Below, piece after piece: positions 5,154 through 39,743 of a stretch of 64,000 bases of DNA. Position numbers and translations under genes: made by a program. This DNA comes from an uncultured Bacteroidales bacterium (GTDB lineage Bacteria; Bacteroidota; Bacteroidia; Bacteroidales; Muribaculaceae). Position 1 is the stretch's first letter; each line of letters begins with the position of its first letter. The notes under the pieces were generated by a model. That model was not told the origin of the DNA. It saw only the letters and a program-made list of their open reading frames with translations, and made no database searches. The stretch is taken from NCBI GenBank assembly GCA_902776435.1, contig CACYQB010000004.1, positions 124,001-188,000 on the forward strand. Reading direction: 5' to 3'.

Positions 5154-6506
5154 ATGAAGAAAATATTGTTTGCTATATGGGCTGTGGCAACTGCATTGAG
5201 TGCCCATGCCCTCAGCGGTGACGTGAATGGTGACGGAGAGGTCACCATCAGCGATGTGAATGCCGTGATCGATATCATCTTGAGTGGAGACTATAATAGT
5301 CCCGCTGCCGATGTCAATGGTGACGGAGAGGTGGGTATCAGTGACGTGAACGCTGTCATCGACATCATCCTGGGTGGCGGTAGCCAAGAAACGCTCACGC
5401 CCAAGGAAATCACCCTTGATGACAGCGAACTGGTCGAGCCCACCGAGTATATTACCCAGGACGAGGATGCTCCCGATTATGGTGACTTTGTCGAGAATAC
5501 TATCTGGGCAACAACAGTCAATATTACCTTTGACGGCGAAACGGCCACAGTAACTGGCAATCCCAGTAGCGTGATTGCCAGTGTCAATGGCGCCCATGTG
5601 ACCATCACCAGTGCTGCCAAGCGCGTGAAATATGTAGTTACTGGCTCGACCAGCAATGGTTCGCTTAAGTTTTATAGCGAGCGCAAGTTCCAGCTCCAGC
5701 TGAATGGTGTTGACATCACCAATCCCAATGGTGCCGCAGTCAACAACCAGTGCGGCAAGTCGTTGTACCTCGTGGTGAACGCAGGCACAGTCAACACCCT
5801 GCGTGACGGAGAGGATTATGCCATGGTCGAGGGCGAGGACCAGAAGGCGGCTGTCTTCAGCGAGGGCCAGATTCTTCTCAGTGGCAAAGGTCTGCTCAAT
5901 ATTTATAGTGTGGGCCGCCATTGTCTGGCCAGTGACGACTATGTGTTGGTGCGTCCGGGTACCAAATTGTACCTCAACAGCACCAGTGGTCATGGCATCA
6001 AGGCCAAAGACTATGTCCACATCAAGGGTGGTGTCATCAACATGGAAATTGCTGCCGACGGTGCCAAGGGTATCAACTGCGACAGTCTCGTCAATATCAC
6101 GGGTGGTCGTACAACCATCATCACCAGTGGCACATCTAAAGAAGAGTTGGATTCGTTAGGCAATCCCGTTTCGACGGGCGCTGCTGGCGTCAAGGCCGAT
6201 TGTGGTTTCACCATGAGAGGCGGTCAACTCAATATCAAGTGCACCGGCGATGATGCTAAGGGCGTCAACGTGGCTAGATCCTTGACGTTTACGGGTGGCG
6301 AACTGAATGTGGTGGCTTTAGGCCATCAGGTGGCCGTAGCCCCCAAGGGCGTGAAATGTGATGTGGACTGCACCATCCAGGGCGGTTCCTTCTATAGCTG
6401 TGCCCTCTATGGCCGTGCCATCGATGTCGAGGGGACCCTTACCGTTGCCGAGGGTTACACCTCCCGCAACGACAGCGACGAGCGCCTCTTCGAGGTCATC
6501 TACTAA
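5154..6506 (+). CDS. Secreted protein with N-terminal dockerin pair and Cthe_2159-type beta-helix
   Basis: This 450-residue protein has a signal peptide (MKKILFAIWAVATALSAHA), then two dockerin type I calcium-binding repeats (GDVNGDGEVTISDVNAVID near residues 22-40 and VNGDGEVGISDVNAVIDIIL near 53-73), then a Cthe_2159-type beta-helix closely similar to the preceding protein (DGSLKFY.../NGSLKFY..., DQKAA.FSEGQI, .VRPG.K.Y.NS). Dockerins are more often C-terminal, so this order is unusual. It starts 40 bases after its paralogue, without the lipobox. The dockerins may attach it to a cohesin-like partner, but none was found in this window. Confidence 0.8.
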   Translation: MKKILFAIWAVATALSAHALSGDVNGDGEVTISDVNAVIDIILSGDYNSPAADVNGDGEVGISDVNAVIDIILGGGSQETLTPKEITLDDSELVEPTEYITQDEDAPDYGDFVENTIWATTVNITFDGETATVTGNPSSVIASVNGAHVTITSAAKRVKYVVTGSTSNGSLKFYSERKFQLQLNGVDITNPNGAAVNNQCGKSLYLVVNAGTVNTLRDGEDYAMVEGEDQKAAVFSEGQILLSGKGLLNIYSVGRHCLASDDYVLVRPGTKLYLNSTSGHGIKAKDYVHIKGGVINMEIAADGAKGINCDSLVNITGGRTTIITSGTSKEELDSLGNPVSTGAAGVKADCGFTMRGGQLNIKCTGDDAKGVNVARSLTFTGGELNVVALGHQVAVAPKGVKCDVDCTIQGGSFYSCALYGRAIDVEGTLTVAEGYTSRNDSDERLFEVIY

Positions 6507-11863: not shown

Positions 11864-14764
11864 TTAATTGCCGCCGCTTGACAGCAACAGGTCGATGAGG
11901 GCTGTCACATCAGCGATAGTGATGTTGGTGTCCCCATTCACATCTGCGCAGATGGAGCAAGCTCCGTTGTCAGTACCCAGGAGGTAGTCGATGAGGAAGG
12001 TAACGTCAGAGATCGCTACATTGCCGTCATGGTTCACATCTCCCAGCTCATAGCCGTGGCCGTTCTGGAACAGCGTCACTTCCTGCTTGTTACTCCACTC
12101 GCTCTCGGTACCATCCTTATATAAGGCCTTCACCTTATAGACATAGGTGCCCTCGGCCTCAAGATTTGTCACCGTGTAGAACTTCTCAGTGATGTCAGTG
12201 ATGAGTCGGTAGGTGGTGTCACCAGTCTCGTTGGCACGGAGGTTAGCGTTTGTAGTGATGTCACCCGGGTAGATGTACACGCTCTGGATGGCAGTGTAGT
12301 TGGAACGGGCCTGTACACGCACGCGGTCACTTGATGAGCAGTTCAGCACAACGACGATTTCCTGGAAGTCTTCCATGTCTTCGGAGTTCAGCGTGTAGTC
12401 TTGATAAGCTGAGCCTGTAGAAATCCTGACTTGAGCCACACCATAGTTGGCGGGATTGAAGGACTTAACCCTTGCCACTACGCTCACCTTGTTGTTACCG
12501 GTCAAATCGAGTGTCGGGCTGACGAGGGCACCATAGGTGGTGGTCCACCAACTGGAGGTAGCACCCGTGATAACAAAGCCATCATTGACATAGAAGTTGT
12601 TCTCGGCACTCCAGCCCTCGGGCAGATAGTCGGTTGCCGAATTGACCACATTGGGCAGGTTACCTTCTTCGTTAGTAACAGCTTCGATATCTGACAGATC
12701 GCAGATACTGATAGCCTCGGGGCCATTAGGTTTGGTCATTACCTCAAGGGTGTAGCTGGTTACATTCTCGTCCGGGGTCTGGTCGGTCCAGTCGGCACGG
12801 AACTCAGTCAGGTTGATATACTCCTCGACAACGGGTTGCATCACGGGAGTGTAAGTCTCGATGAGGCCCTGTCCCGTCAAGTTGACGGTTACACTCTCGG
12901 CTCCGTCGCTGGCCAGCGTCAAAGTGGCGTTGTAAGTCTGTACAGCAGCCGGTGAGAAAGTTACAGTCACGGTCACACCATTGGCGGCATTGCTCTTGTT
13001 GATGACCATGGGATTAACCGCAAACACACCGTTAGGATCGTTGAGCGTGAGCGTGATGTTGTCTGTCAGAGCCAAGCCTGTAACGGTAAACGTCTTGGTG
13101 ATGCTGGAATTCACCGCCGTGGCACCACAGTTAATGTTTTCGGCCGAAACCTCGATGGTGGGATCGGTAATGGCGCCCTTCATGTACCAGAAGCTGGCAG
13201 TACCGTCGTTGTTGATAACCATTTCGGTCACGGGTTTGCCCAGATAGCCGGCATTGCCCGAGATGTTGCCACTGGCAGTCATATTGAGCTTGGCGGCTGG
13301 TGTCGAGTTATCGGTGAACTCGGTTTTGCCATTTCTGGGCCATGTGTCGCCACTCTCGTTGTTGGTAGACAAGGAGTTGTCGGCGGGCATGATGGTTACC
13401 AACTGGATGTTCTGGTTGTTGGGCGTATTGGCCTGCCAGCGACTGGCGTCGTATGTGATGTGGTGGATCAATAGACCTTGAGCGGGCAGATAGCGGTCCC
13501 ATCCCTGTTGCCTGCGGTTCTCAATGATGAAGTACTCGTTGCCGTTGATGTCGCTCTGGATGAACAAAGCCTTGTCGGTCTCTTCATTCTTCTGATTCCA
13601 GATGGGCAAGGTGTAATAGAGTCCAGGAGTGGGAATGACGTAGTCAACCCAACCCATGAAGTTCTTCTCATAGGCCGAATAGCCTACGGGAGTATAGGTG
13701 TCGTTGGCATAGCAACCAGTGTCCATGATGTCCCAATAACCCATGCCATAGTGGCCGCCATAGTTTGTATCATAGAAGTCGGGCAGACCCAAGCAGTGAC
13801 CAAACTCGTGGCAGAAGGTACCGATACCATCGATGGTGCTACCGTTGTCGTTGCTGCCGTGCACCTCGTTGAACACGGCGAAATTGTTCACATATACGTT
13901 ACTGCCGCTGGGACGGAAGGCTCCGTTACCACCCAGGCCATAGTATGCCGCCGACTGGAGATTCCAGTTGCAGGGCCAGACTGCACTGGGGACGGTGTAG
14001 GAAGCTTGAGCCTCGCCCACACCGGCATAGATGACGATGACCACGTCACAATAGTTGTCACTGTTGGTATCAAAACGATTGAACGACACACCGTCGGCAG
14101 CAGCCATCTGACAGGCCTCGGTCACCATAGTGCCCAAGCCCTTGTCGTTGCCACCCGAGTCATTGCCGCCGTAGTTCTGGCGGTTCTGGCTCAAGGTGTA
14201 AATGCCAAATACCTCAAAATCGGGGTCATATTTCTCGTTAGACTGGTCCTTAAAATACTGCTGAACGCTCGTGCTGCCCGTCAGCATCGCCTGGATAATT
14301 TGCTCGCGGGTATTGTTGAACTTCTTGTCCTTGAACTCGACAAGGATGATGGGCACCTTGCGGGTTCCCTGAGCAGGAACATCAGCCTCGGCGTTGCTGC
14401 CGCCCACGCCAAAGGCGGGCTTGCCCTGTATGGGCTTAAATTCCTTGTGAGGCATCGTCAAGTTTTTGCGCTGAGCTTCAATAAACGCTACTTCGCTGGC
14501 TGTACGCTCATTGGCCTCATGGGCACGTACAGCGGTCAGACCTGTCAGTGATGAGTTGTAGTAGTAGTCACCATCGTCACCCAGGGCAACCATCAAGCCG
14601 TCGCTGGTGAGCAGGGCATGATTAAAGGCGTTACCCACGGCCTGCACCTTCAAGGTGGTACCGTCACTTTGTTTCAATGTGTGCCAACCGGGTTTAGCGG
14701 GCACTGCCATGGCTGCGATTGCACAACACAGCAATAGCATCAGAGTAATACAAATTTTTTTCAT
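11864..14764 (-). CDS. Secreted M6-family metalloprotease with C-terminal dockerin repeats
   Basis: This 966-residue protein has a signal peptide (MKKICITLMLLLCCAIAAMA), an M6 (immune inhibitor A-like) catalytic domain with the zinc motif H319-E-F-G-H323 followed by CLGLPDFYD, and a downstream Met-turn-like GMGYWDIMD. Then come beta-rich modules (an Ig-like stretch near residues 535-640, a fibronectin-type segment near 645-860) and a C-terminal dockerin pair (GDVNHDGNVAISDVTFLID and VNGDTNITIADVTALIDLLL). M6 enzymes degrade host or matrix proteins after secretion; substrate specificity cannot be read here. The next gene upstream is another dockerin-tailed enzyme. Confidence 0.9.
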   Translation of the reverse strand: MKKICITLMLLLCCAIAAMAVPAKPGWHTLKQSDGTTLKVQAVGNAFNHALLTSDGLMVALGDDGDYYYNSSLTGLTAVRAHEANERTASEVAFIEAQRKNLTMPHKEFKPIQGKPAFGVGGSNAEADVPAQGTRKVPIILVEFKDKKFNNTREQIIQAMLTGSTSVQQYFKDQSNEKYDPDFEVFGIYTLSQNRQNYGGNDSGGNDKGLGTMVTEACQMAAADGVSFNRFDTNSDNYCDVVIVIYAGVGEAQASYTVPSAVWPCNWNLQSAAYYGLGGNGAFRPSGSNVYVNNFAVFNEVHGSNDNGSTIDGIGTFCHEFGHCLGLPDFYDTNYGGHYGMGYWDIMDTGCYANDTYTPVGYSAYEKNFMGWVDYVIPTPGLYYTLPIWNQKNEETDKALFIQSDINGNEYFIIENRRQQGWDRYLPAQGLLIHHITYDASRWQANTPNNQNIQLVTIMPADNSLSTNNESGDTWPRNGKTEFTDNSTPAAKLNMTASGNISGNAGYLGKPVTEMVINNDGTASFWYMKGAITDPTIEVSAENINCGATAVNSSITKTFTVTGLALTDNITLTLNDPNGVFAVNPMVINKSNAANGVTVTVTFSPAAVQTYNATLTLASDGAESVTVNLTGQGLIETYTPVMQPVVEEYINLTEFRADWTDQTPDENVTSYTLEVMTKPNGPEAISICDLSDIEAVTNEEGNLPNVVNSATDYLPEGWSAENNFYVNDGFVITGATSSWWTTTYGALVSPTLDLTGNNKVSVVARVKSFNPANYGVAQVRISTGSAYQDYTLNSEDMEDFQEIVVVLNCSSSDRVRVQARSNYTAIQSVYIYPGDITTNANLRANETGDTTYRLITDITEKFYTVTNLEAEGTYVYKVKALYKDGTESEWSNKQEVTLFQNGHGYELGDVNHDGNVAISDVTFLIDYLLGTDNGACSICADVNGDTNITIADVTALIDLLLSSGGN

Positions 14765-15004: not shown

Positions 15005-15051
15005 ATAAAAAACATTGGCAGAATTAAGCAGTGCTCGCTTAATTCTGCCAA
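15005..15051 (-). terminator. Terminator after PPAD-like gene
   Basis: A perfect 15-base stem (15015-15029 with 15037-15051, arm TTGGCAGAATTAAGC) with a 7-base loop, followed in the - direction by ATGTTTTTTATAA. It starts 20 bases beyond the stop codon at 15072. Confidence 0.9.
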
Positions 15052-15071
15052 CGGATAGGGCAATGATTAAT

Positions 15072-16694
15072 TTATTTCGCCAGAATTAAATCTATTAGGG
15101 CTGTGACATCGGACACGTTGATGTTGCCGTTGCTGTCCACATCAGCCGCTGTGGTGTTAAACGGCGAAGGAGTGGCGCCCAGGAGGAAATCAATCAGCGT
15201 AGTCACGTCTTCAATATTCACATAACCATCTTCGTTCACGTCACCCAGGGTGAAGGACATGTTGACGGTGAAGTGGTGGGGGTCCAGTTCGCCGAACACT
15301 GGTTGCTGATAGCGGTGTCCCGACTCGTCGGCACCGAAGACGTAGTAGTCAACCTCTGATGCCTGGTGATAGCCCTTGATGTAGCCCACATATTCATCGG
15401 GATTGCCGGTGGCTGTCATGTGTGCAGCCTGGTAGGGGCCGTTGTCAATGCTGTAGTATACCAACAGTGAGTCCTCTTTCAGGGGCTTTCCGCTATAGGC
15501 GATGAATTTGCTCGTCACGGCAATGGAATCTCCACACTCCTGTGTGCCGTAGAGCACGTCCCTGTGGTCGACAAACAGCATCTCGAAGTCCATCACACCG
15601 CGCGTGCGGCAGTGCAGGGCATCGGTGTTTTGCCAACCGGTGCTGTAGGATGTATTGGACACGCCAATCACCTCGTAGCCGGGCATGGCGTCCCTGTAGA
15701 CCTGGAGCGCACGTTCATTGTAAGTGCTGTTGCTGCCCAGTGGCACATAGACTTGCTTGTTGAGGATCAGGCTGTTGGTATAAGGAGCAAGGGTGTTGCC
15801 ACCCGGTTCGTCAACGCGGTACACCTTGTAGGGATAGCCCCAGCAGCAGTTGGTTGTGGCGAAATAGTTGGCCACAGACTCATAGTACTCATATCTGCTG
15901 TCGGTCTTCGGCAGTTTCGCAATCAGGATTTTATCAGGGGCCAGGTATTTTCCCCAACAGTCGACATGGGCAATGTATTGCCCCTGCGGGTCGATAGTGA
16001 TGTGGTAGTTGTCGATGCCCAGGTAGTCGAGCATCTTCTGGCGTACGTTGGCCTCGTTATTGTTGTTCTCTGTAATGACCAGATCGTCGCTAACGCCATG
16101 TCCGCGTCCATCCTCCATCATGTTGCCTCCGGTGTGTTGCAGGTTCATGCCGTAGAGAGGGATATCCCAGAACGTGGCAAAAACCGAGGGTATGACATCG
16201 TCGTAAGGTCGAGGACGATTATACACGTTGTCGACGATGGCAGGAGTCTTGCCGGCAAAGATATACCAGGGACCATAGTCGCGCACCCAGTAGGAATCTG
16301 AATTCGCAATCACAAAGGTGACTTGATCCATGTTTACCCCCGCGTTGGTGAAACTCGACCGTGCGCTTGATTGTTGGGACGACAGCACGATGCAGTACAC
16401 ATGGCAGTTCTCGGCTAACGATTTAACCAGGGAAACTGGTATGCCCAGCGGATAGCGAATCGTCACGCCCTGCATGGGCTCAAACTCTGCCACGAAGCGG
16501 GGTGCTTCGGTTGGCGCGGGTGTCTCATTGAAGTTGGAGGCCCTCACAGGGGTCCGCATTTCTTCTTCGGACAGGTAGTGAAGTTTTTTCCAGTCGGGTG
16601 CTTCTTGTGTCAGTGCTTGGGCGTTAACAAGGCCCGCCGTCGACATCATAGAAGCGAACATGATTAAAGCAAAAAATGAGTTTTTAATTTTCAT
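15072..16694 (-). CDS. Porphyromonas-type peptidylarginine deiminase with C-terminal dockerins
   Basis: This 540-residue secreted protein (signal peptide MKIKNSFFALIMFASMMSTAG...) has the agmatine-deiminase/PPAD fold. The catalytic set is visible: Asp139 (WVRDYGPW), His243 and Asp245 (AHVDCWGK) and Cys362 (ALHCRTRG), matching Asp130, His236, Asp238 and Cys351 of P. gingivalis PPAD. Arg160 and Arg162 (NRPRP) correspond to PPAD Arg152/Arg154, which bind the carboxylate of C-terminal arginine. It is therefore predicted to citrullinate peptides rather than hydrolyse agmatine. An Ig-like segment follows (near 400-470), then two dockerin repeats (GDVNEDGYVNIEDVTTLIDF and VDSNGNINVSDVTALIDLIL) where PPAD has a T9SS signal. 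Activity is inferred. Confidence 0.88.
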   Translation of the reverse strand: MKIKNSFFALIMFASMMSTAGLVNAQALTQEAPDWKKLHYLSEEEMRTPVRASNFNETPAPTEAPRFVAEFEPMQGVTIRYPLGIPVSLVKSLAENCHVYCIVLSSQQSSARSSFTNAGVNMDQVTFVIANSDSYWVRDYGPWYIFAGKTPAIVDNVYNRPRPYDDVIPSVFATFWDIPLYGMNLQHTGGNMMEDGRGHGVSDDLVITENNNNEANVRQKMLDYLGIDNYHITIDPQGQYIAHVDCWGKYLAPDKILIAKLPKTDSRYEYYESVANYFATTNCCWGYPYKVYRVDEPGGNTLAPYTNSLILNKQVYVPLGSNSTYNERALQVYRDAMPGYEVIGVSNTSYSTGWQNTDALHCRTRGVMDFEMLFVDHRDVLYGTQECGDSIAVTSKFIAYSGKPLKEDSLLVYYSIDNGPYQAAHMTATGNPDEYVGYIKGYHQASEVDYYVFGADESGHRYQQPVFGELDPHHFTVNMSFTLGDVNEDGYVNIEDVTTLIDFLLGATPSPFNTTAADVDSNGNINVSDVTALIDLILAK

Positions 16695-27552: not shown

Positions 27553-30453
27553 CTATTGCTGCAAGATGAGATCAATCAGAGCATTGACATCTGCGATACC
27601 GATCTCACCATCTCCGTTAACATCATAGACAGGATCCGTCGAGTAGGAGGTGAGCAGGTTGTCAATCAGGGTATTGACATCAGCGATGGAAATTTCGCCA
27701 TCCAGGTTCACGTCACCCACAATCTTGTCGATGATGGCCTCAATATGGACAAATGATTTCCAGATGTTATCGTTTTGATATGCTTCCAATGCCTCTTGGG
27801 GCACCTTGAGGTTAGCCTTCTTGTAAACGCCGTTGGCCCAGCAGCCCTTGTCGGTGATGGCAGGGGGTGTCATGGCCTTGCAGGTGATGTCGCTGATGAC
27901 CATGCTCGATGAGAAGGCTTTGCTGCCCAGGTTTTCCAGACCGCTACCCAGGGTGACTTCCTTGAGCCCGGTGCAGATGCTGAATGCTTTCTCACCGATG
28001 GACTTCACATTGTCCCCGATGTTGACTTGAGTGAGGCTACCGCAGTTGTAGAACGCGCCGTCACCGATGGTTTCCACATCGTTGCTGATGCTGGCGCTGG
28101 TCAACTGGTTACAGCGGACAAAAGCGTTTTTACTGATGGCTGTCACACCTGCAGGGATCGTCAATTCGGTGATTTTTTCACCATTGACATAGAGCGTGGC
28201 GCCATTGCCGATCGGGTTGGCCTGGTCATTGTCAAAGTCGATGCCGCACCAGGTCTTCAAGTCACCGACGTGCACGCTGGTCATGGCAGTACAGCCCGTA
28301 AAGGCATCGGCACCGATGGCGCTGAGGCTCGGCGGGAAATGCACACTGGTGATATTGCTGCCGCCGGCAAAGGTGTTGTTGCCGATGGCGGTCAAGCCCT
28401 CAGGGATGTGCAGTTCGGTGATTTCCACATTGTTCAAGTAGATTTGATGTGTCTTGTAGAGTGGGTTGGAGGATTTGTCCTGGAACTGCATGCCGCACCA
28501 CGAGGTTAGATCGGTGATTTCCAGACGGTTGAGCCTGTTACAGGCGTAGAAAACCTCTTGACCGATGACGGCCTGATTCCTGTCGAAGGTCACGCGCTCG
28601 AGCGCGTCGCAGAAGGAAAACGCAACGTCGCCAATGCTCTTGACCGATGGAGTGAAGGTGACTTCGGCCAACGATGGGCAGCAGGAAAAGGCATAGCTGC
28701 CGATGTGCACGTTACCATGGCCGAAATCCAGTTCGTTGAGCCCTTCACAGAAGGCGAACGCGGCATAGTCAATCAGTAAGTTTCCGTCACCTAATTCCAA
28801 GCGTTTGAGCCCGTTACACATTGAGAAGGCGTAGTAGTCAATGTGGGTGACTGAAGACGGGATTTTAACTTCCTGGAGGCTATAGCAGTTGCTGAAGGCG
28901 TATGGGTCGATGGTGGTGACTCCCTCATGGATATTGACGTGAGACAGTGAGGGACAATGGGCAAACGCGCAATTGCCGATCACCGAGACCGTCGAAGGAA
29001 TAGTCACTTCACTTAAACTTGAACAACCATCGAACAGATAACTTCCAAGGGCGCTGAGGCTCTCGCTTAGAGTGACCTGCTTGAGGTTAGGACTGAACAT
29101 GAAACAGCCTGTTCCTGTAGTTGTGACGGAATTGGGCATCGTCACCGAGGTGAGCGCCTCACAGTCGCTGAAGGCGTAGTCTCCGATGGTGGTAACAGGA
29201 TAATTCCTCCCGTCCAGGCTGATGGATGCTGGAATGGCGACATCTCCTGAATAGGAATTGAACCGAGCGTCCCTAACGGACACCGAGGCTTCATCCCCAT
29301 AAATCTTGTAATAGATGCCATCCTTCTCAACGTCATAAACCGGCCTGGCGGGCCCCATCTCGTCAGGGTAGATGTTGTGCAGCATGCCCTGATTGAACTC
29401 GTAGGAGAAGTAATTGTTGCCCAGCACGTCGAGTGAGAAGTAGCCTTCATAACCGCCATCATACCCCCAGTTGACGTGGTACATATTACCCTGACACCCG
29501 TCGATGATAAAGGCATGGCCGCCACCGCTGCCAGTGCCCCTGTACAGGACAGGCCGTCCGTTGGACAGGTCTTCGAGCAGCAGGGCATCCCACTGTTCGG
29601 CAGTATAGTCATCACGACGGACTTTGTAGGCATCAGCATTGTAGCCAAACCGTTTCATGGCGAGCAATTTATTGTCCTCGTTAGAGCCACTACCCTCGTC
29701 GGAGTACTCCATCATGCAGGCTTGCCCGCAGTATCTCATCAGGGTGGCTACCGCATCGACCTGGGCGGAGGTGTAGTTGTTGTAGTAGAAGTCAATCATG
29801 TTGTCCCAGTCAGCAGTCGTGGCGGGCAGAGCGGGCAAACTGAGGCCTGTCGTCAGCGTGAAGTAGGCTGGGAGAGCGGGCAGTTCCTCGGGATATTTCC
29901 AGTAATACATCACCTGGGCCATCGCGGTGGCCACACATCCGGTGTAACAGTATTTGCCATTCATCACCGGGCACTGGTTGTAATAGGGTTCGGTTTGTCC
30001 CCAGTGGCAAGTGATCATCGGCTCGATAGTGACATCATTGGACGTAGCGGTTGACGGTTGGATGTCGGGATGGGATCTCAGGCACTCCATCTGCTGCTTA
30101 TACTGGTCCAGCAGCCATTGCATGTTGGCCGGGATGCGTTTCATGTCAATGTTGCTGTCACCGTAGGCCAGCACCGATCGCGTGCGGTCATCACCGCTGA
30201 CGATGACAAAACCTTGTTCGTTATCGATATTGAACACATAGTAATCGGCTACCTTGGCATTCCCGGTAGTGTATTCGGCATGCACTAGTTTCATCGTTGC
30301 ATTGGGGGGCGTCATGCGCTTGCCCTGCTGAGAATTAAGAAACTGTTGAGCCGCATGCTGTGCGGCATCGGCATCAATGGGATCTGCGTTCACGCTGGCT
30401 ATAGACATCATGGCAGCCGTTATCATCAGGAAAAGGCGAATGTAAGGTTTCAT
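27553..30453 (-). CDS. C10-family cysteine protease with BspA-like repeats and dockerins
   Basis: Start 30453 gives a signal peptide (MKPYIRLFLMITAAMMSIAS). Next come a propeptide with the Spi-like pattern (DADAAQHAAQQFLNSQQG) and a streptopain-type catalytic domain with Cys173 (YTGCVATAMAQVMYYWKYP) and His313 (GGHAFIIDG). From about residue 390 to 860 there are many leucine-rich BspA-type repeats (I.SSV..I...AF..C..L..V). The C-terminus has two dockerin repeats (GDVNLDGEISIADVNTLID and VNGDGEIGIADVNALIDLIL). At 966 residues it is a multi-domain secreted protease, probably acting on or adhering to host or dietary protein. Confidence 0.92.
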   Translation of the reverse strand: MKPYIRLFLMITAAMMSIASVNADPIDADAAQHAAQQFLNSQQGKRMTPPNATMKLVHAEYTTGNAKVADYYVFNIDNEQGFVIVSGDDRTRSVLAYGDSNIDMKRIPANMQWLLDQYKQQMECLRSHPDIQPSTATSNDVTIEPMITCHWGQTEPYYNQCPVMNGKYCYTGCVATAMAQVMYYWKYPEELPALPAYFTLTTGLSLPALPATTADWDNMIDFYYNNYTSAQVDAVATLMRYCGQACMMEYSDEGSGSNEDNKLLAMKRFGYNADAYKVRRDDYTAEQWDALLLEDLSNGRPVLYRGTGSGGGHAFIIDGCQGNMYHVNWGYDGGYEGYFSLDVLGNNYFSYEFNQGMLHNIYPDEMGPARPVYDVEKDGIYYKIYGDEASVSVRDARFNSYSGDVAIPASISLDGRNYPVTTIGDYAFSDCEALTSVTMPNSVTTTGTGCFMFSPNLKQVTLSESLSALGSYLFDGCSSLSEVTIPSTVSVIGNCAFAHCPSLSHVNIHEGVTTIDPYAFSNCYSLQEVKIPSSVTHIDYYAFSMCNGLKRLELGDGNLLIDYAAFAFCEGLNELDFGHGNVHIGSYAFSCCPSLAEVTFTPSVKSIGDVAFSFCDALERVTFDRNQAVIGQEVFYACNRLNRLEITDLTSWCGMQFQDKSSNPLYKTHQIYLNNVEITELHIPEGLTAIGNNTFAGGSNITSVHFPPSLSAIGADAFTGCTAMTSVHVGDLKTWCGIDFDNDQANPIGNGATLYVNGEKITELTIPAGVTAISKNAFVRCNQLTSASISNDVETIGDGAFYNCGSLTQVNIGDNVKSIGEKAFSICTGLKEVTLGSGLENLGSKAFSSSMVISDITCKAMTPPAITDKGCWANGVYKKANLKVPQEALEAYQNDNIWKSFVHIEAIIDKIVGDVNLDGEISIADVNTLIDNLLTSYSTDPVYDVNGDGEIGIADVNALIDLILQQ

Positions 30454-30532
30454 AATGGATACTTTTTTATAGTTAGATGAGTTGTTATCAGGATTCATCG
30501 GGTGTGAGATACTCTTTACCCTCATGCAGAAG

Positions 30533-30935: not shown

Positions 30936-33767
30936 TTATTCCTCGGGAGTCATGACTACCTCAACCTTGTTGCCGGCAGCCAGAATCTGGCGGGCAAAGG
31001 CGGCGATGGTCTCAGGCGTCTGAGCCTTGACGATGTCGATATAACCGGTGTGGGGGTCGATGCCACGCTCCACATAGCGGTTGAGTACCCACATCCAGTA
31101 CCAGTTCTCCTTGATTTCGTTGTTGTAGTCCTTGATCAAGAGTTCCTTGAAGTCCTCGAGCGAACTGGCGTCGATGCTCTTGCCAGCGGCAACGATTTCG
31201 TCGTTCATGATCTTCAGTGCCAGGTCGGTGTACTCGGGCTTGACGGGACAGTAGGCATAGATGCAACTGAAGGGGTTGTCACCGTTCTGGGTTGACCAAC
31301 CGCTGGCAGCGGTGGAATAGGCGGCACCGGCATCCTCACGGATCTTCTGCAGATAAATCTTGTCCAGAACACGTGCCAGCAGGTCGGCCTTGATGTTGCT
31401 CTCCATGCTATAGGGTGTGGTCTTGTCATACCAGTAGATGGTAGTGTAAGCCTTGGGGTCTTCCATCTTGCGGGTGAAGTGGTTGATGACCTGACCGACG
31501 GGGTAGTTGTCGATGTTCACCCAGTTGGTCTTGGCGCCCTTCTTGCCGGGCAGGCTGGCGATGTACTGCTCGATGAGCGGACGGATGACGGCCTCGTCAA
31601 ATGAGCCGACGAAATAGAACGTGTAGCTGCCGGCATTGGCGGTGACCTCCTTGGCCATCTGCAGCGCACGGTCATAGTCGAGTTGCTTGACCATCTCGGC
31701 GGTGAAGGGCTTGCTGCGCCAGTTGTGGCTGCCCAGGGTCAGACCCAGCGAGTCGCTGAAGGCCGTCTCAGGAACGAGATCTCTGTTCTTGAGCACCATG
31801 TCGAGTTGGCTTATCAGGTTGTTGAACTTCTTCTCGTCCTTGCGGATATCGGTGAACATCAGGTAGTTGAGTTGGAACAAGGTCTCTAGGTCTTTGACGG
31901 TCGATGAACCGCTGACCCTGTTGAACTCGTCGTCCATGCTCATGCTGCAGCTCACCTGCTTGCCAGCGAGGGCTTTCTCGAGCTCGGTGTTGTTGAATTC
32001 ACCCAGTCCGCTCACTTCGATAACGGCTTCAAAGAGTGAGAAGTTGGCATGGTCTTTCTCGCCATAGATGGAGTTGCCGCCACGTTGCAGCGCCTTCATC
32101 TGGATGTCGTCATCCTTTAAGTCGGTCTTCTTGAGGATGACGCGCGCGCCGTTGCTCAGTTCCAGTTCCTTGTAACCGAACTGCTTGTTCTCGGTCTCCT
32201 TGACGATTTTACCCTTCTTGGGCAAATTGGCGATGAGGGGTTCCTGCTTCACGTTGTCCACATAGGCCTCGACCTTGGCAGTGAGTCCGGCATCGACAGC
32301 AGCCTTCAGTGCATCAGCGTTTGGATAAACAGCGCCTTCCTTGTCTTGGTTGAAGCTCACGACGATCAAGTTTTTACCATCGGTGGTAATGATTCCGGGC
32401 AGCATAGAGTTGATAGCCTCGACGGGAATCATGGGCACGATTTGGTTCATGATTTCATACTTCTGCTCAATCGAGGGAATGGGTTCATTGTCGAGATAGT
32501 GGCTGCAGTATTGGCGGCCGTAAAAATCATTGTCCACCTTGTTGCGCTCGTTGTACTGGCTCTCCAGACCGCTCAGATACTCTTCACGGGCACGGATGTA
32601 CTCAGTCTCGGTGAAGCCGTGCTCCATGGCGCGCATGGCCTCGGTGACGATGTACTGGGTTGATTGCTCCGTCATGCCCTCCTTGGGAAGGAACACGAGG
32701 TTGAAGGCATCCTTGTTCTTGGAGAACAGATAGTTGCCGTCATAGGCATATCCCATCAGGAAAGGGCAGTCGGCATCCTGTGCCTTCTCGCTTAGGCGGC
32801 TGTTGAGCATAGTGCTAATCATGTTGCGCATATAGTTATAGAGGAGATAGTCAAGAGTGGTTTTACCCTCCTTCTCCACAGCGTCGTGCTTGAAAATGAC
32901 CTGGGTGCTGCTGGCCTGCTGCTCCTTGTCCTTATCGATGACGATAATAGCCGTTTCATTGTCGGGCACAGGTTCCTCAACCACTTGTGCGGCGTTAGGA
33001 TCGAGTTTGCAGTCTTTGAACAGTTCCTTGATCTGGGCTTCGATATGGTCCTCGTCCACGTCACCCACGATGACCAAGGCCTGGTTGTCGGGGCGATACC
33101 ACTTGTGGTAGTAGTCACGCAGTTCCTTATAGGGGAAGTTGTCCACCACGCTCATCAGGCCGATGGGCATGCGTTTGCCGTATTTCGAGCCTGGATACAG
33201 CGTCTCAAGGTTGTTCTCGAGCATGCGCATCTGTGCGCCGCGGCTCAGTCGCCACTCCTCGTGGATGACGCCGCGCTCCTTATCGATCTCCTCGTCGGTG
33301 AGCAGCAGGCCGCCGCTCCAGTCCTTGAGGATGAGCAGACACGAGTCAAGTGCGCTCTGTCGCGTGCTGGGCACGTTGTTGATGTTATAGACCGTTTCGG
33401 CAATGCTGGTATAGGCATTCATGTCACGGCCGAACTCCACACCCAGCGAACGGGTGTAGTCGATAATGCCCTTGCCCTCGCCATTGAAGTGCTCACTGCC
33501 GTTGAAGGCCATGTGCTCCAGGAAGTGAGCAAGGCCACGCTGGCTTTCTTCCTCCTGGATAGAGCCCACGCGCTGAGCGATGTAGAAGTTCACGCGGTGC
33601 TCGGGATAGTTGTTGTGACGGATGTAGTAGGTCAATCCGCAGTCCAGTTTACCGATGCGCACAGCTTCGTCCACGGGAATGGGCGGCATCTGCTGTGCCA
33701 TCATCACATTGGTGCCCAATGCCAATATCATCAGCATCAAGGCAATAAAAAATCTCTTCACGTTCAT
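30936..33767 (-). CDS. M16-family zinc metalloprotease (tandem copy 1)
   Basis: This 943-residue protein has a signal peptide (MNVKRFFIALMLMILALG...) and the inverted zinc motif H81-F-L-E84-H85 (HFLEHMAFNGSEHF), with the third zinc ligand expected in ERGVIHEEW. The duplicated, catalytically inactive C-terminal M16 half follows. Length fits the two-half insulinase/pitrilysin type in Bacteroidota. It lies 69 bases after copy 2, probably in one transcript, and ends at a strong terminator. It is likely periplasmic, degrading peptides. Confidence 0.93.
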   Translation of the reverse strand: MNVKRFFIALMLMILALGTNVMMAQQMPPIPVDEAVRIGKLDCGLTYYIRHNNYPEHRVNFYIAQRVGSIQEEESQRGLAHFLEHMAFNGSEHFNGEGKGIIDYTRSLGVEFGRDMNAYTSIAETVYNINNVPSTRQSALDSCLLILKDWSGGLLLTDEEIDKERGVIHEEWRLSRGAQMRMLENNLETLYPGSKYGKRMPIGLMSVVDNFPYKELRDYYHKWYRPDNQALVIVGDVDEDHIEAQIKELFKDCKLDPNAAQVVEEPVPDNETAIIVIDKDKEQQASSTQVIFKHDAVEKEGKTTLDYLLYNYMRNMISTMLNSRLSEKAQDADCPFLMGYAYDGNYLFSKNKDAFNLVFLPKEGMTEQSTQYIVTEAMRAMEHGFTETEYIRAREEYLSGLESQYNERNKVDNDFYGRQYCSHYLDNEPIPSIEQKYEIMNQIVPMIPVEAINSMLPGIITTDGKNLIVVSFNQDKEGAVYPNADALKAAVDAGLTAKVEAYVDNVKQEPLIANLPKKGKIVKETENKQFGYKELELSNGARVILKKTDLKDDDIQMKALQRGGNSIYGEKDHANFSLFEAVIEVSGLGEFNNTELEKALAGKQVSCSMSMDDEFNRVSGSSTVKDLETLFQLNYLMFTDIRKDEKKFNNLISQLDMVLKNRDLVPETAFSDSLGLTLGSHNWRSKPFTAEMVKQLDYDRALQMAKEVTANAGSYTFYFVGSFDEAVIRPLIEQYIASLPGKKGAKTNWVNIDNYPVGQVINHFTRKMEDPKAYTTIYWYDKTTPYSMESNIKADLLARVLDKIYLQKIREDAGAAYSTAASGWSTQNGDNPFSCIYAYCPVKPEYTDLALKIMNDEIVAAGKSIDASSLEDFKELLIKDYNNEIKENWYWMWVLNRYVERGIDPHTGYIDIVKAQTPETIAAFARQILAAGNKVEVVMTPEE

Positions 33768-33836
33768 AATGCTAAATATATTTTATTGAATAATACTAAA
33801 CATAATTACAGGTTGGAGTTATGACACATCCTCATG

Positions 33837-36704
33837 TTACTCCTCGGGGGTCATGACCACCTCAACCTTGTTGCTGGCAGCCAGAACCTGGCGGGCAAAA
33901 GCCGCGATGCTCTCAGGAGTCTGGGCATTGATCATCTCCTCATATCCAGTGTGGTAGTCAATACCAGGATCAATATAGGACGAGATAATAGACATCCAGT
34001 AGGAGTTCTCCTTGAGTTCGGTATTGTGCTCCTTAATCATGAGTTCCTTGATTTCCTGCAGGGTAGTCGCATCGATGGTACTGCAAGCCTTGACCATCTC
34101 CTCGTTCAGAATCTTGAGGGCGACGTCAACAAACTCTGGTTTTATCGGGCAGGAAGCCGAGACAGAGGTAATGCATCGGTCACCATAGAGCCCGGCCCGG
34201 CCACCAGCGCTTGCCGAGTAGGCGGCACCTGCATCCTCACGAATCTTCTGCAGGTAAATCTTGTTCAGCACCTGACCCAGCATTTCTGCCTTGATGTCGT
34301 TCTCAACACTGTAAGGAGTCTTGGTGTCATACCAGATAATCTCGGCACTGGCCTTAGGCGTTTCCATCTTGCGGGAGAAGTGGGTGATGGTCTCGCCTTC
34401 GGGGCGGGTAGTAACATTTACCCAGTTGGCGGGAGTGCCTTTCTTGCCAGGCAGGCTGGCGATGTACTGCTCGATGTACTGACGGATCAGAGCCTCGTCA
34501 AAGTTACCCACGAAGATAAAAGTGTAGTTGGCGGCGTTGGCGGTGCGCTCCTTGACGATCTCCATCATGCGGTCACGGTTCATCTTCTTCAAGTCCTCAA
34601 CATTGAAGGGTCTGCAGCGCCAATCATGGTTGTTAAGGATATAAATGACCGAGTCGAGGAATACAGATTCATGGTCGATGTTACGGTTCTTGTAAATGTC
34701 TTCGAGAAAGTTCTTGTTTTGGTTGAAATTCTTCTCGTCGATTTTGATATCGGTAAAGGTGAGATAGGTGAGCTGGAACATGGTTTCCAGGTCCTTGACC
34801 GTGGAGTTACCGGATACAAAATCACTGTATGGAGACATAGCAAAGAAGACATCAACCTGTTTGCCTGCGGTAGCCTTTTCGAGCTCAGTTCTTGAGAAGT
34901 TGCCTAGACCGCAATCCAGCAAGAAGAAGTCCAGCTTCTCAATGTTGACCCAATCCTCCTCACCATAGAGCGAAGTACCACCGCGAGTCTCGGCAGTCAT
35001 CTGGATCTCGTTCTTCTTGAAATCGGTCTTCTTGAGGATGGCACGGGCACCGTTGCTCAACTCGAGTTCCTTGTAGTCAAACTTGCTGTTGTAGGTCTCC
35101 TTGATGATTTTACCCTTCTTGGGCATCTCGCTGATGAGAGGCTCCTGCTTCACGTTATCGACAAATGCCTCGACCTGGGCATTCAGACCCGCATCAATGG
35201 CAGCCTTCAGACTCTCAGGGGTGGGATAAACGGCATCGTCTTTCTCCTGGTTGAAGTTCATCACAACAAGGTTCTCACCTGTGGTATTGATGAGCCTGGG
35301 AATGACCATGTTGATGAGTTCGACAGGTATCTGTGGAACGAGCGCCTGCATGAGTTGGTACCTCTGCTCAATCGAGGGTATGGGCTCGTTGTTAAGGTAA
35401 TTATTGCAATACTCAACGGCAAATGCTGTATTGGGAATCTTATTGCGTTCGTTATAGGCATTCTCCAAAATGCTCATGAGATTCTCCTTGGCACGCTGGT
35501 ATTCGGTATCAGTAAAGCCGTGCTCGGCAGCGCGTACAGCCTCGGTAACAACTGCCTGGACAGCGGCCTCGGTCTGGCCTTCCTTGGGCGACACGCTCAA
35601 GGTGAAAGCCTCGGCATTCTTCGACAGCAGATAAGGACCATCGGAAGCACCTGCTGACAGGAAGGGACAGTCGGGCTCCAAGGCCATCTCATTCAGACGT
35701 TTATTGAGCATACTGCTCATCATGGCAGTAGTGAAACTCTTAAACAGGTACATCATGTCGCCTTTCTGCTCCTTAGGTGTGGCCTCGTGCTTGAACATGA
35801 TTGTCACATTGTTTTCTTGCTGTTCCTTGTCCTTGTCAATAACGATGATGGGCTCCTCGTTGTCGGGCACGGGCTCGAGGGCCACTTGGGCCGCATTGGG
35901 ATCCAGCACACAGCCCTTGAAGAGTTCCTTGATTTGGGCCTCGATGTGATCGACATCCACGTCACCCACGACAATCAGGGCCTGGTTGTCGGGACGATAC
36001 CACTTGTGGTAATAGTCGCGCAAGTCCTGATAGGGGAAGTTGTCCACAATCTCCATCAGGCCGATGGGCATGCGGCGGCCATACTTCGAGCCAGGATACA
36101 GCGTCTCGAGCTGGCGCTCCAGAATGCGTTGATAGGCGCTGCTGCGCAATCGCCACTCCTCATGAATCACACCGCGCTCCTTGTCAATCTCCTCGTCGGT
36201 GAGCAACAGGCCACCACTCCAGTCCTTGAGGATGAGCAGACAGGAATCGATAGCGCTCTGGCGGGTGCTTGGCACGTCATTGATTAGATAGATGGTCTCG
36301 GCTATGCTGGTAAGGGCGTTCAGGTTCTTGCCGAAGGCGACACCCAGCGAGCGGGTATAGTCGATGATGCCCTTGCCCTCGCCATTGAAGTGCTCACTGC
36401 CGTTAAAGGCCATGTGCTCCAGAAAGTGGGCCAGACCACGCTGGTTCTCTTCCTCCTGGATGGAGCCCACGCGCTGGGCGAGGAAGAAGTCCACGCGGTG
36501 TTCGGGATAGTCGTTGTGGCGGATGTAGTAAGTCAGTCCGCAGTCCAGTTTACCGATACGCACCTGGTCATCAACGGGCATGGGACCCATCGACTGTGCC
36601 TTGACGGTAATGGCGCCCAGCGTCATGATTAGCAGCAAAGCGACGAAAAGTCTTTTCACGTTTATAATGCTGTATTTATTGGAGATGTTAATAATATGAG
36701 TCAT
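33837..36704 (-). CDS. M16-family zinc metalloprotease (tandem copy 2)
   Basis: It closely resembles the two neighbours throughout and keeps HFLEHMAFNGSEHF and ERGVIHEEW. The start is uncertain. Where copies 1 and 3 have ATG (in ATTATGAAC), this copy reads ATTATAAAC. Translation must therefore begin at the upstream in-frame ATG (36704, adding MTHIINISNKYSIIN before the signal peptide) or at GTG in VKRLFVALLL. The first option gives 955 residues with an N-extension ahead of the hydrophobic core. It is the first gene of a two-gene unit with copy 1 and has its own -7 box. Confidence 0.9.
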   Translation of the reverse strand: MTHIINISNKYSIINVKRLFVALLLIMTLGAITVKAQSMGPMPVDDQVRIGKLDCGLTYYIRHNDYPEHRVDFFLAQRVGSIQEEENQRGLAHFLEHMAFNGSEHFNGEGKGIIDYTRSLGVAFGKNLNALTSIAETIYLINDVPSTRQSAIDSCLLILKDWSGGLLLTDEEIDKERGVIHEEWRLRSSAYQRILERQLETLYPGSKYGRRMPIGLMEIVDNFPYQDLRDYYHKWYRPDNQALIVVGDVDVDHIEAQIKELFKGCVLDPNAAQVALEPVPDNEEPIIVIDKDKEQQENNVTIMFKHEATPKEQKGDMMYLFKSFTTAMMSSMLNKRLNEMALEPDCPFLSAGASDGPYLLSKNAEAFTLSVSPKEGQTEAAVQAVVTEAVRAAEHGFTDTEYQRAKENLMSILENAYNERNKIPNTAFAVEYCNNYLNNEPIPSIEQRYQLMQALVPQIPVELINMVIPRLINTTGENLVVMNFNQEKDDAVYPTPESLKAAIDAGLNAQVEAFVDNVKQEPLISEMPKKGKIIKETYNSKFDYKELELSNGARAILKKTDFKKNEIQMTAETRGGTSLYGEEDWVNIEKLDFFLLDCGLGNFSRTELEKATAGKQVDVFFAMSPYSDFVSGNSTVKDLETMFQLTYLTFTDIKIDEKNFNQNKNFLEDIYKNRNIDHESVFLDSVIYILNNHDWRCRPFNVEDLKKMNRDRMMEIVKERTANAANYTFIFVGNFDEALIRQYIEQYIASLPGKKGTPANWVNVTTRPEGETITHFSRKMETPKASAEIIWYDTKTPYSVENDIKAEMLGQVLNKIYLQKIREDAGAAYSASAGGRAGLYGDRCITSVSASCPIKPEFVDVALKILNEEMVKACSTIDATTLQEIKELMIKEHNTELKENSYWMSIISSYIDPGIDYHTGYEEMINAQTPESIAAFARQVLAASNKVEVVMTPEE

Positions 36705-36734
36705 GTTGTCTTGGGTTTATAGTTATTGGTGATG

Positions 36735-36742
36735 CAAATATA
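36735..36742 (-). promoter_or_regulatory. Promoter -7 box for M16 copies 2 and 1
   Basis: TATATTTG on the - strand, about 31 bases before the upstream ATG at 36704. Confidence 0.6.
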
Positions 36743-36796
36743 GTACAAATCATAAAGTTAAGCAAATTGTTATGGAAAAAGTGTCATTAGCAAGAG

Positions 36797-36823
36797 CCAG
36801 GGACTCGATTGCCGAGCCCCTGA
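36797..36823 (-). terminator. Terminator after M16 gene 3
   Basis: CAGGGACTCG pairs with CGAGCCCCTG in the same arrangement as the hairpin after M16 gene 1. About 30 further bases between hairpin and stop codon are also nearly identical in the two places. Confidence 0.7.
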
Positions 36824-36853
36824 CTCCAGGAGTTGTATTTTGAGGGAATCTGT

Positions 36854-39685: not shown

Positions 39686-39743
39686 AATTCTCATGATTAA
39701 ATTGATAAATAATATGTATTGTTTTTGTTATTTCCATACCTTA

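What the first reader, a model, noticed from the sequence alone, without database searches (positions are those of the whole stretch)
15072..16694. PPAD-like citrullinating enzyme carrying dockerins instead of a type IX sorting tail
Catalytic Asp139, His243, Asp245 and Cys362 and the substrate Arg160/Arg162 line up with the P. gingivalis enzyme at nearly constant offsets, so C-terminal-arginine peptide deimination is predicted. PPAD is known for its link to citrulline autoimmunity and was long thought limited to Porphyromonas. The dockerin tail implies a different surface display, and a secreted M6 protease that could generate C-terminal peptides lies just downstream.
Basis: partly seen in the sequence, partly recalled or inferred. 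Interest (0 to 1): 0.7.

Follow-up and report, generated by a model that had tools for sequence, protein, structure and literature searches.

The report
Dockerin-tagged PPAD-type enzyme, gut Bacteroidales
A bacterium whose close relatives come from ruminant guts carries a near relative of the gum-disease enzyme that turns C-terminal arginine into citrulline, with the usual export tail replaced by a dockerin, so this chemistry is probably not confined to oral Porphyromonas and its surface display may work differently here.

Summary
It encodes 540 aa: a full PPAD-type deiminase with Ig-like domain (E 4.8e-104 to P. gingivalis PPAD; model TM 0.95 to 4ytb, 0.71-0.79 to agmatine deiminases), then one two-repeat type I dockerin. 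The catalytic residues (D139, H243, D245, N307, C362) and R160/R162 are present. C-terminal-arginine deimination is well supported but untested. PPAD-like genes are widespread: 143 of 393 sampled genomes of the order at E<=1e-20. The tail is a real switch: in a tree of 114 sequences the dockerin clade sits inside relatives ending in type IX (T9SS) sorting domains. The host genome has at least 150 dockerin matches, many on exported proteases and LRR adhesins, keeps SprA, PorU and PorV, and has only 3 weak cohesin matches. The dockerin is thus probably the local surface tag rather than a cellulosome part. How it works is open: docking to an unproven receptor, or direct T9SS recognition. The M6 partnership is not supported: a strong terminator separates the genes, and no M6 homologue was found beside the gene in 80 related loci (3 with under 1 kb held downstream). 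Verdict: new variant of a known kind.

The parts
15072..16694 (-). PPAD-like peptidylarginine deiminase with C-terminal dockerin, 540 aa
16620..16694 (-). apparent signal peptide, residues about 1-25
   Evidence: read by eye; no signal-peptide program was run
15603..16436 (-). deiminase domain as matched by Pfam PAD_porph (residues 87-364), with D139, R160, R162, H243, D245, N307, C362
15264..15581 (-). Ig-like domain of PPAD type (residues about 372-477)
   Evidence: alignment to PPAD runs to residue 477; strands in the model; limits by analogy with PMC4893104
15084..15248 (-). type I dockerin, two repeats (residues 483-537)
   Evidence: also in the whole-genome scan
15013..15053 (-). intrinsic terminator just after the PPAD stop (18 pairs, then a T run)
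   Evidence: dG -26.9 kcal/mol, z -7.26
11864..14764 (-). neighbouring M6 metalloprotease with C-terminal dockerin, 966 aa; apparently a separate unit, linkage not conserved

Best explanation
A secreted PPAD-type peptidylarginine deiminase. Shown by sequence and model: complete deiminase plus Ig-like domain, all catalytic residues and the two arginines that in P. gingivalis bind the substrate's free carboxylate; a signal peptide by eye. Inferred mechanism: D139 and D245 hold the guanidinium, C362 attacks C-zeta, H243 acts as acid/base, R160 (and less so R162) selects C-terminal Arg, giving peptidyl-citrulline and ammonia. Shown: the family is widespread in Bacteroidales, and the dockerin clade arose among relatives with T9SS tails. 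Inferred: on entering this Muribaculaceae-like genus, where a C-terminal dockerin is the common tag of exported proteases and adhesins, the enzyme exchanged its T9SS tail for that tag, which now keeps it at the cell surface by binding a shared receptor. The receptor is not identified; the only leads are a few dockerin-bearing proteins with weak cohesin matches. Likely role (inferred): deiminating C-terminal arginines on peptides released by exported proteases.
For: Enzyme; D139, R162, H243, D245, N307, C362 in 114 of 114 sequences, R160 in 110 of 114; model pLDDT 87.7, TM by target 0.95 and rmsd 1.8 A to 4ytb versus 0.71-0.79 and about 3 A to agmatine deiminases. Tail switch: 28 of 28 relatives at >=85% identity have dockerins, 54 of 56 at 70-85% T9SS CTDs (library models confirmed a few); dockerin clade nested among CTD rows, 3 dockerin groups. 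Common tag: 98-153 dockerin matches (scoring limit about 150) in 12 dockerin-type genomes, 0-3 in 9 CTD-type; sampled CTD-tailed proteins whose best own-genome homologue ends in a dockerin 19 of 23, against 0 of 17 for proteins without CTD; similar dockerin helices on 99 own proteins; C10, S8, M6 proteases and BspA LRR proteins among 70 scanned.
Against: No activity, localisation or binding data. Only 3 weak cohesin matches, at most 31.4 bits, against at least 150 dockerin matches. The route across the outer membrane is unexplained if the dockerin is not an export signal. CTD scarcity is not peculiar to the dockerin genus: many other genera of the family have as few. The main dockerin clade is one origin, and the dockerin-type/CTD-type contrast compares lineages, not independent cases. 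The 99 dockerins were picked with a model built from PPAD tails, so their likeness is partly by selection. No Arg-specific protease was shown in this genome. In P. gingivalis the R154A change did not differ significantly from wild type on BAEE (PMC4893104), so R162 alone says little.
Confidence: 0.7

Rival explanations
1. The dockerin is itself read by the T9SS, directly or through an adaptor, as an alternative sorting tail, so that one translocon exports both CTD-tailed and dockerin-tailed cargo.
For: SprA over cut-off in 50 of 50 genomes, PorU and PorV in 21 of 21, dockerin- and CTD-type alike; SprA and PorV match in 0 of 14 controls, PorU over cut-off in 0 of 14. Full-length or near full-length PorU matches number 2-4 per dockerin-type and 1-2 per CTD-type genome (my count). 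The exchange hits cargo kinds shared with CTD-tailed proteins. A dockerin-tailed gene lies next to porV in the own genome and, by coordinates, in G008 and G011.
Against: 7 of 20 distinct own ORFs with an internal dockerin seem to end in a CTD-like tail, which would be redundant; but this is by eye, and TIGR04183 did not match the two such proteins scanned (L150, L117). T9SS CTDs are beta-sandwiches, dockerins helical (recalled). SprA is kept in 156 of 158 genomes of the family, most without many dockerins, so its retention needs no dockerin. The best-scoring own PorU copy showed neither C25 His nor Cys motif by my pattern, though 3 of 4 copies did.
Confidence: 0.2
2. The enzyme is released or stays in the periplasm, and the dockerin is a stabilising or calcium-binding remnant without sorting role.
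For: No cohesin partner of convincing score; one relative, L044, has lost most of its dockerin; dockerins also sit inside or near the start of proteins (20 distinct own ORFs).
Against: Dockerin present in 28 of 28 close relatives, 26 of them complete (L031 cut by a contig end, L044 truncated), and similar helices on 99 different own proteins (partly by selection) suggest a shared partner.
Confidence: 0.25
3. An agmatine deiminase-like or other guanidine-modifying enzyme rather than a peptidyl deiminase.
For: Weak matches to agmatine deiminase models, 34-35 bits.
Against: Those scores are under a tenth of the cut-offs; Ig-like domain and R160/R162 are PPAD features; PPAD is by far the best sequence and structure match.
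Confidence: 0.07

Closest known systems
P. gingivalis peptidylarginine deiminase (PPAD; PDB 4yt9, 4ytb, 5ak7)
   Same: Deiminase plus Ig-like architecture, catalytic set, R152/R154 pair; 41-42% identity, TM by target 0.93-0.95
   Different: Dockerin instead of a T9SS C-terminal domain (the latter recalled for PPAD); other host; no Arg-gingipain shown here
T9SS-tailed PPAD-like proteins of gut Bacteroidales (e.g. L057, L060, L086)
   Same: 74-79% identical in the matched 420 residues, same active-site residues
   Different: Longer C-terminal part ending in a TIGR04183 domain (PF18962 in L057 and L060)
Cellulosomal type I dockerins (e.g. PDB 6kge, 1ohz)
   Same: Two-repeat type I dockerin, E 1.3e-5 to 2.1e-4
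   Different: Many cargo proteins are proteases and LRR proteins, cohesins nearly absent
Agmatine deiminase (TIGR03380, NF010070)
   Same: Same guanidine-modifying fold
   Different: Far below model cut-offs; TM by target 0.71-0.79

Membership tests
PPAD-type peptidylarginine deiminase | PAD_porph domain over curated cut-off | tested here: met
   84.7 bits vs 25
PPAD-type peptidylarginine deiminase | Catalytic Asp, His, Asp, Asn, Cys | tested here: met
   D139, H243, D245, N307, C362 by alignment
PPAD-type peptidylarginine deiminase | Arg152/Arg154 that bind the C-terminal carboxylate | tested here: met
   R160, R162 aligned without gaps; side-chain placement not measured
PPAD-type peptidylarginine deiminase | Ig-like domain after the deiminase domain | tested here: met
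   alignment to residue 477, structure match over 430 columns
PPAD-type peptidylarginine deiminase | Activity on peptides ending in Arg | not testable with these tools
   needs an assay
PPAD as T9SS cargo | T9SS C-terminal sorting domain | tested here: not met
   no TIGR04183 or PF18962 match at E<=0.001; Dockerin_1 instead
Agmatine deiminase | Score over TIGR03380 / NF010070 cut-off | tested here: not met
   34.1 vs 381.8 and 35.4 vs 483 bits
Cellulosome component | Type I dockerin | tested here: met
   40.6 bits vs 22.9
Cellulosome component | Scaffoldin with cohesins in the same genome | tested here: inconclusive
   3 weak PF00963 matches in the own genome, 2 over cut-off, each in a different ORF; of those 3 ORFs as fetched, 2 showed the cohesin again
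Cellulosome component | Cargo mainly plant cell-wall enzymes | tested here: not met
   70 of 99 sampled dockerin-tailed own proteins: C10 15, LRR_5 14, S8 5, M6 4; few glycoside hydrolases among the 25 families shown of 35

The most novel reading that the evidence does not exclude
In this gut genus the dockerin has become a T9SS-compatible sorting tail: a calcium-binding helical module known from cellulosome assembly stands in for the beta-sandwich CTD on a large part of the exported proteins, PPAD included (99 distinct C-terminal cases in the sampled sixth of the own genome), served by SprA, PorV and multiplied PorU.
Probability: 0.18. Interest if true: 0.88.

Novelty: new variant of a known kind. 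Interest (0 to 1): 0.57.

Why it matters
If active, PPAD-type citrullination is a common trait of gut Bacteroidales rather than a speciality of oral Porphyromonas, which changes where bacterial citrullinated peptides may arise (human-gut carriage was not tested here). The natural exchange of a T9SS tail for a dockerin in otherwise 74-79% identical enzymes is a ready-made experiment on what each tail does, and on how a T9SS-bearing bacterium uses so many dockerins with almost no recognisable cohesins.

Tried and rejected
M6 partner: rejected. None of the 9 neighbouring genes matched any of 80 loci at E<=1e-20; the queries do find themselves in the window, and at E<=1e-5 the M6 query hits 25 loci, the M6 rows I printed (12) all being 54-60-residue stretches of dockerin size, and LytTR hits 1 locus. 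3 of 80 loci hold under 1 kb downstream of the PPAD ORF (L031, L049, L097), 2 more under 3.3 kb. 'T9SS lost in dockerin genomes': rejected. 'Dockerins displaced CTDs in this genus alone': weakened, since its CTD counts (7-17) lie within the range of the other genera (0-34, limit 34). Cellulosome: not favoured. A conserved neighbourhood: no flanking gene family is shared by more than 3 of 31 loci. Promoter: the pattern TTTG-19-TAnnTTTG (recalled) was not found upstream of PPAD, 7 matches in the window against a mean of 3.66 in shuffles, 8 of 100 shuffles reaching 7; a TACCTTTG box is visible at 16733-16726. Numbers of sigma-70-like and terminator-like sites were near chance; the 18-pair hairpin stands out.

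Papers: listings; passages only of PMC11121387, PMC5831590, PMC4893104, PMC10266427. PMC11121387 says the only bacterial PAD described at species level is that of P. gingivalis; the listed abstract of PMC10329627 gives P. gulae a PPAD too. PMC5831590 speaks of no cohesins or dockerins in its genome, 'consistent with other Bacteroidetes'; PMC10266427 reports Dockerin_1 matches in some Bacteroidales cells, so dockerins in the group are known. In the listings and passages that I saw, nothing describes a dockerin-tailed PPAD or a dockerin as T9SS tail (searches: for the tail; 10, 11, 42, 43, 73 for the enzyme).

Full report
What is there. The ORF at 15072..16694 lies on the minus strand and encodes 540 aa. 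It has an apparent signal peptide (by eye), a Pfam PAD_porph domain (9e-24, res. 87-364) and a type I dockerin (2.8e-10, res. 483-537). Agmatine deiminase models match at under a tenth of their cut-offs. Against solved structures the best hit is P. gingivalis PPAD, E 4.8e-104 over residues 55-477, deiminase plus Ig-like domain. The residues that PMC4893104 names for catalysis and carboxylate binding map to D139, H243, D245, N307, C362 and R160, R162. That paper found the R152A change harmful and R154A not significantly different from wild type on one substrate, so R160 is the more telling of the two.

Fold. An AlphaFold2 model from 51 aligned sequences (A1: own plus 50 of the other 113 rows, chosen for spread) has mean pLDDT 87.7, pTM 0.79, with residues 1-52 under 50. 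Foldseek finds PPAD structures first (4ytb: TM by target 0.95, by query 0.75, rmsd 1.8 A, 42% identity), then agmatine or putative deiminases (TM by target 0.71-0.79). Side-chain geometry was not measured.

Relatives. A scan of named genomes gave 139 relatives, the best 80 kept; titles say Bacteroidales, Bacteroidia, Muribaculaceae, Prevotellaceae or Porphyromonadaceae, many with goat, buffalo, yak, deer, sheep or horse in the name (RUG is recalled to mean rumen). In 393 genomes of its order 143 match at E<=1e-20, 109 of them at E<=1e-80 by hand count of the table. In 114 sequences (own, 80 loci, 4 tandem copies, 29 of the order survey) D139, R162, H243, D245, N307 and C362 do not vary; R160 is Glu in the 4 tandem copies. 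The other order-survey matches were not examined residue by residue.

Tails. Relatives at >=85% identity: 28 of 28 dockerin (L031 cut by a contig end, L044 truncated). At 70-85%: 54 CTD, 2 dockerin (L063, L095). At 60-70%: 5 of 5 CTD (one cut). Under 60%: 24 rows, 13 CTD-like (most of them weak), 2 dockerin (L231, L235), 9 unassigned. My two tail models were built from these same PPAD tails. Library models confirmed some: TIGR04183 in L057, L060, L086; PF18962 in L057, L060; Dockerin_1 in L095, L063 (L231 was given there without its tail). On a quick maximum-likelihood tree the own clade (30 dockerin rows, L063 included; support 88, without L063 100) branches inside CTD-tailed rows, with L215 and a group of four (three from horse) outside; three dockerin groups are needed. 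The root is a midpoint root. The CTD looks like the older state there.

Genome setting. The own genome (95% complete) has at least 150 Dockerin_1 matches, the scoring limit. In 21 of the 50 genomes, picked by me: dockerins 98-153 in 12 dockerin-type, 0-3 in 9 CTD-type; TIGR04183 6-13 versus 46-148; cohesin 0-3 weak matches, over cut-off in 6 of 21; PorU over cut-off in 21 of 21, with 2-4 long copies per dockerin-type and 1-2 per CTD-type genome by my count; PorV in 21 of 21; SprA in 50 of 50. G025 is CTD-type by content though its PPAD (L095) bears a dockerin. Of 4 own PorU-like copies, 3 show C25 His and Cys motifs and the best-scoring one shows neither by my pattern. Across 158 genomes of the family, dockerin-rich means the own genus (15 of 15, own included) plus G050; others have 0-9; SprA in 156 of 158. 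CTD counts in the own genus (7-17) lie within the family's range (0-34, limit 34), which speaks against a simple story of dockerins displacing CTDs in this genus alone. The 7 own TIGR04183 matches are weak, 25.7-33.7 bits.

Tail exchange beyond PPAD. In fetched own stretches 113 ORFs (99 distinct) end in a dockerin by my model; 49 of 110 bodies (duplicates not removed) have a homologue among 161 CTD-tailed bodies at E<=1e-10, PPAD the closest at 74%, the rest 22-51%. Among sampled CTD-genome genes with a homologue in sampled own genes, 19 of 23 CTD-tailed ones hit a dockerin-tailed protein, 0 of 17 others did (Fisher p 7e-8). Stretches had been chosen for dockerins and CTDs, and families repeat, so the p value is optimistic. 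The 4 exceptions hit 3 own proteins: one with what looks like a decayed dockerin (hit twice) and two with an internal dockerin. Of 94 own dockerin ORFs with a visible start, 87 have a signal-peptide-like start, 4 a lipobox, 3 neither, by a crude rule (5 of 99 left out as cut). Pfam on 70 of the 99 (E<=1e-5): Dockerin_1 62, C10 peptidase 15, LRR_5 14, S8 5, CotH 5, M6 4, Cleaved_Adhesin 3, DUF2436 2, alpha-amylase 2 (25 of 35 families shown; one protein can count in several).

How the tag could work. The helices are much alike, as expected for one or few receptors, though the set was picked by likeness to the PPAD tails. Six proteins behind cohesin matches were scanned: dockerin in 6, LRR_5 in 5, cohesin in 4 (over cut-off in 3). 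By eye 5 of the 6 end in a CTD-like tail, but TIGR04183 did not match the two tested, L150 and L117. They are leads for a docking site, no more. Of 20 distinct own ORFs with an internal dockerin 7 seem to end in a CTD-like tail (by eye); if true, dockerin and T9SS tail coexist, which weighs against the dockerin being the T9SS signal. The bold reading keeps some weight because T9SS core genes are present and PorU is multiplied.

Neighbourhood. An 18-pair terminator follows the PPAD stop. None of 9 neighbouring genes, M6 included, has a homologue at E<=1e-20 in the held flanks of 80 loci (the queries were checked on the window), and the 31 dockerin-group loci share almost no neighbours. PPAD behaves as a solitary gene; the M6 pairing is local.

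Verdict. Observation confirmed; enzyme reading well supported; restriction to Porphyromonas and M6 partnership not supported; display route open. New variant of a known kind.

Noticed in passing
L058, L064, L068, L072 (second copies): Tandem PPAD-like paralogues, 65-66% identical to the query, carry Glu at the R152/R160 position (4 of 4), suggesting a changed substrate.
   Followed up: partly
L150:2928-6515 (-); L142:5278-6744 (-); L121; L120: Dockerin proteins with a weak cohesin match just before the dockerin, three of the four with LRRs, in dockerin-rich genomes.
   Followed up: partly
G005, G008, G011, G013, G018, G022: Second SprA-like stretches (profile about 760-1199, open frames 473-490 aa), 5 of 6 with in-frame TGA, beside a full SprA elsewhere.
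   Followed up: no
L001, L002, L005, L009, L136, L140 (own genome): Internal dockerins followed by a stretch with WCQDW/WCSDW-like motifs, recalled as formylglycine-enzyme (SUMF1) type; 6 of 20 internal cases by eye.
   Followed up: no
L157:2929-6309 (-): Alpha-amylase with C-terminal dockerin next to porV in the own genome; coordinates suggest a dockerin gene in the same place in G008 and G011.
   Followed up: partly
window 5154-6506 (+): Protein with a dockerin towards its N-terminal side, 375 residues following it.
   Followed up: no
window 27553-30525 (-): C10 protease with Spi inhibitor domain, BspA LRRs and a terminal dockerin: another proteolytic member of the same tag set.
   Followed up: no
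window 30936-39694 (-): Three consecutive ORFs of 943-955 aa matched weakly by NCBIfam pitrilysin-type models, all below cut-off.
   Followed up: no
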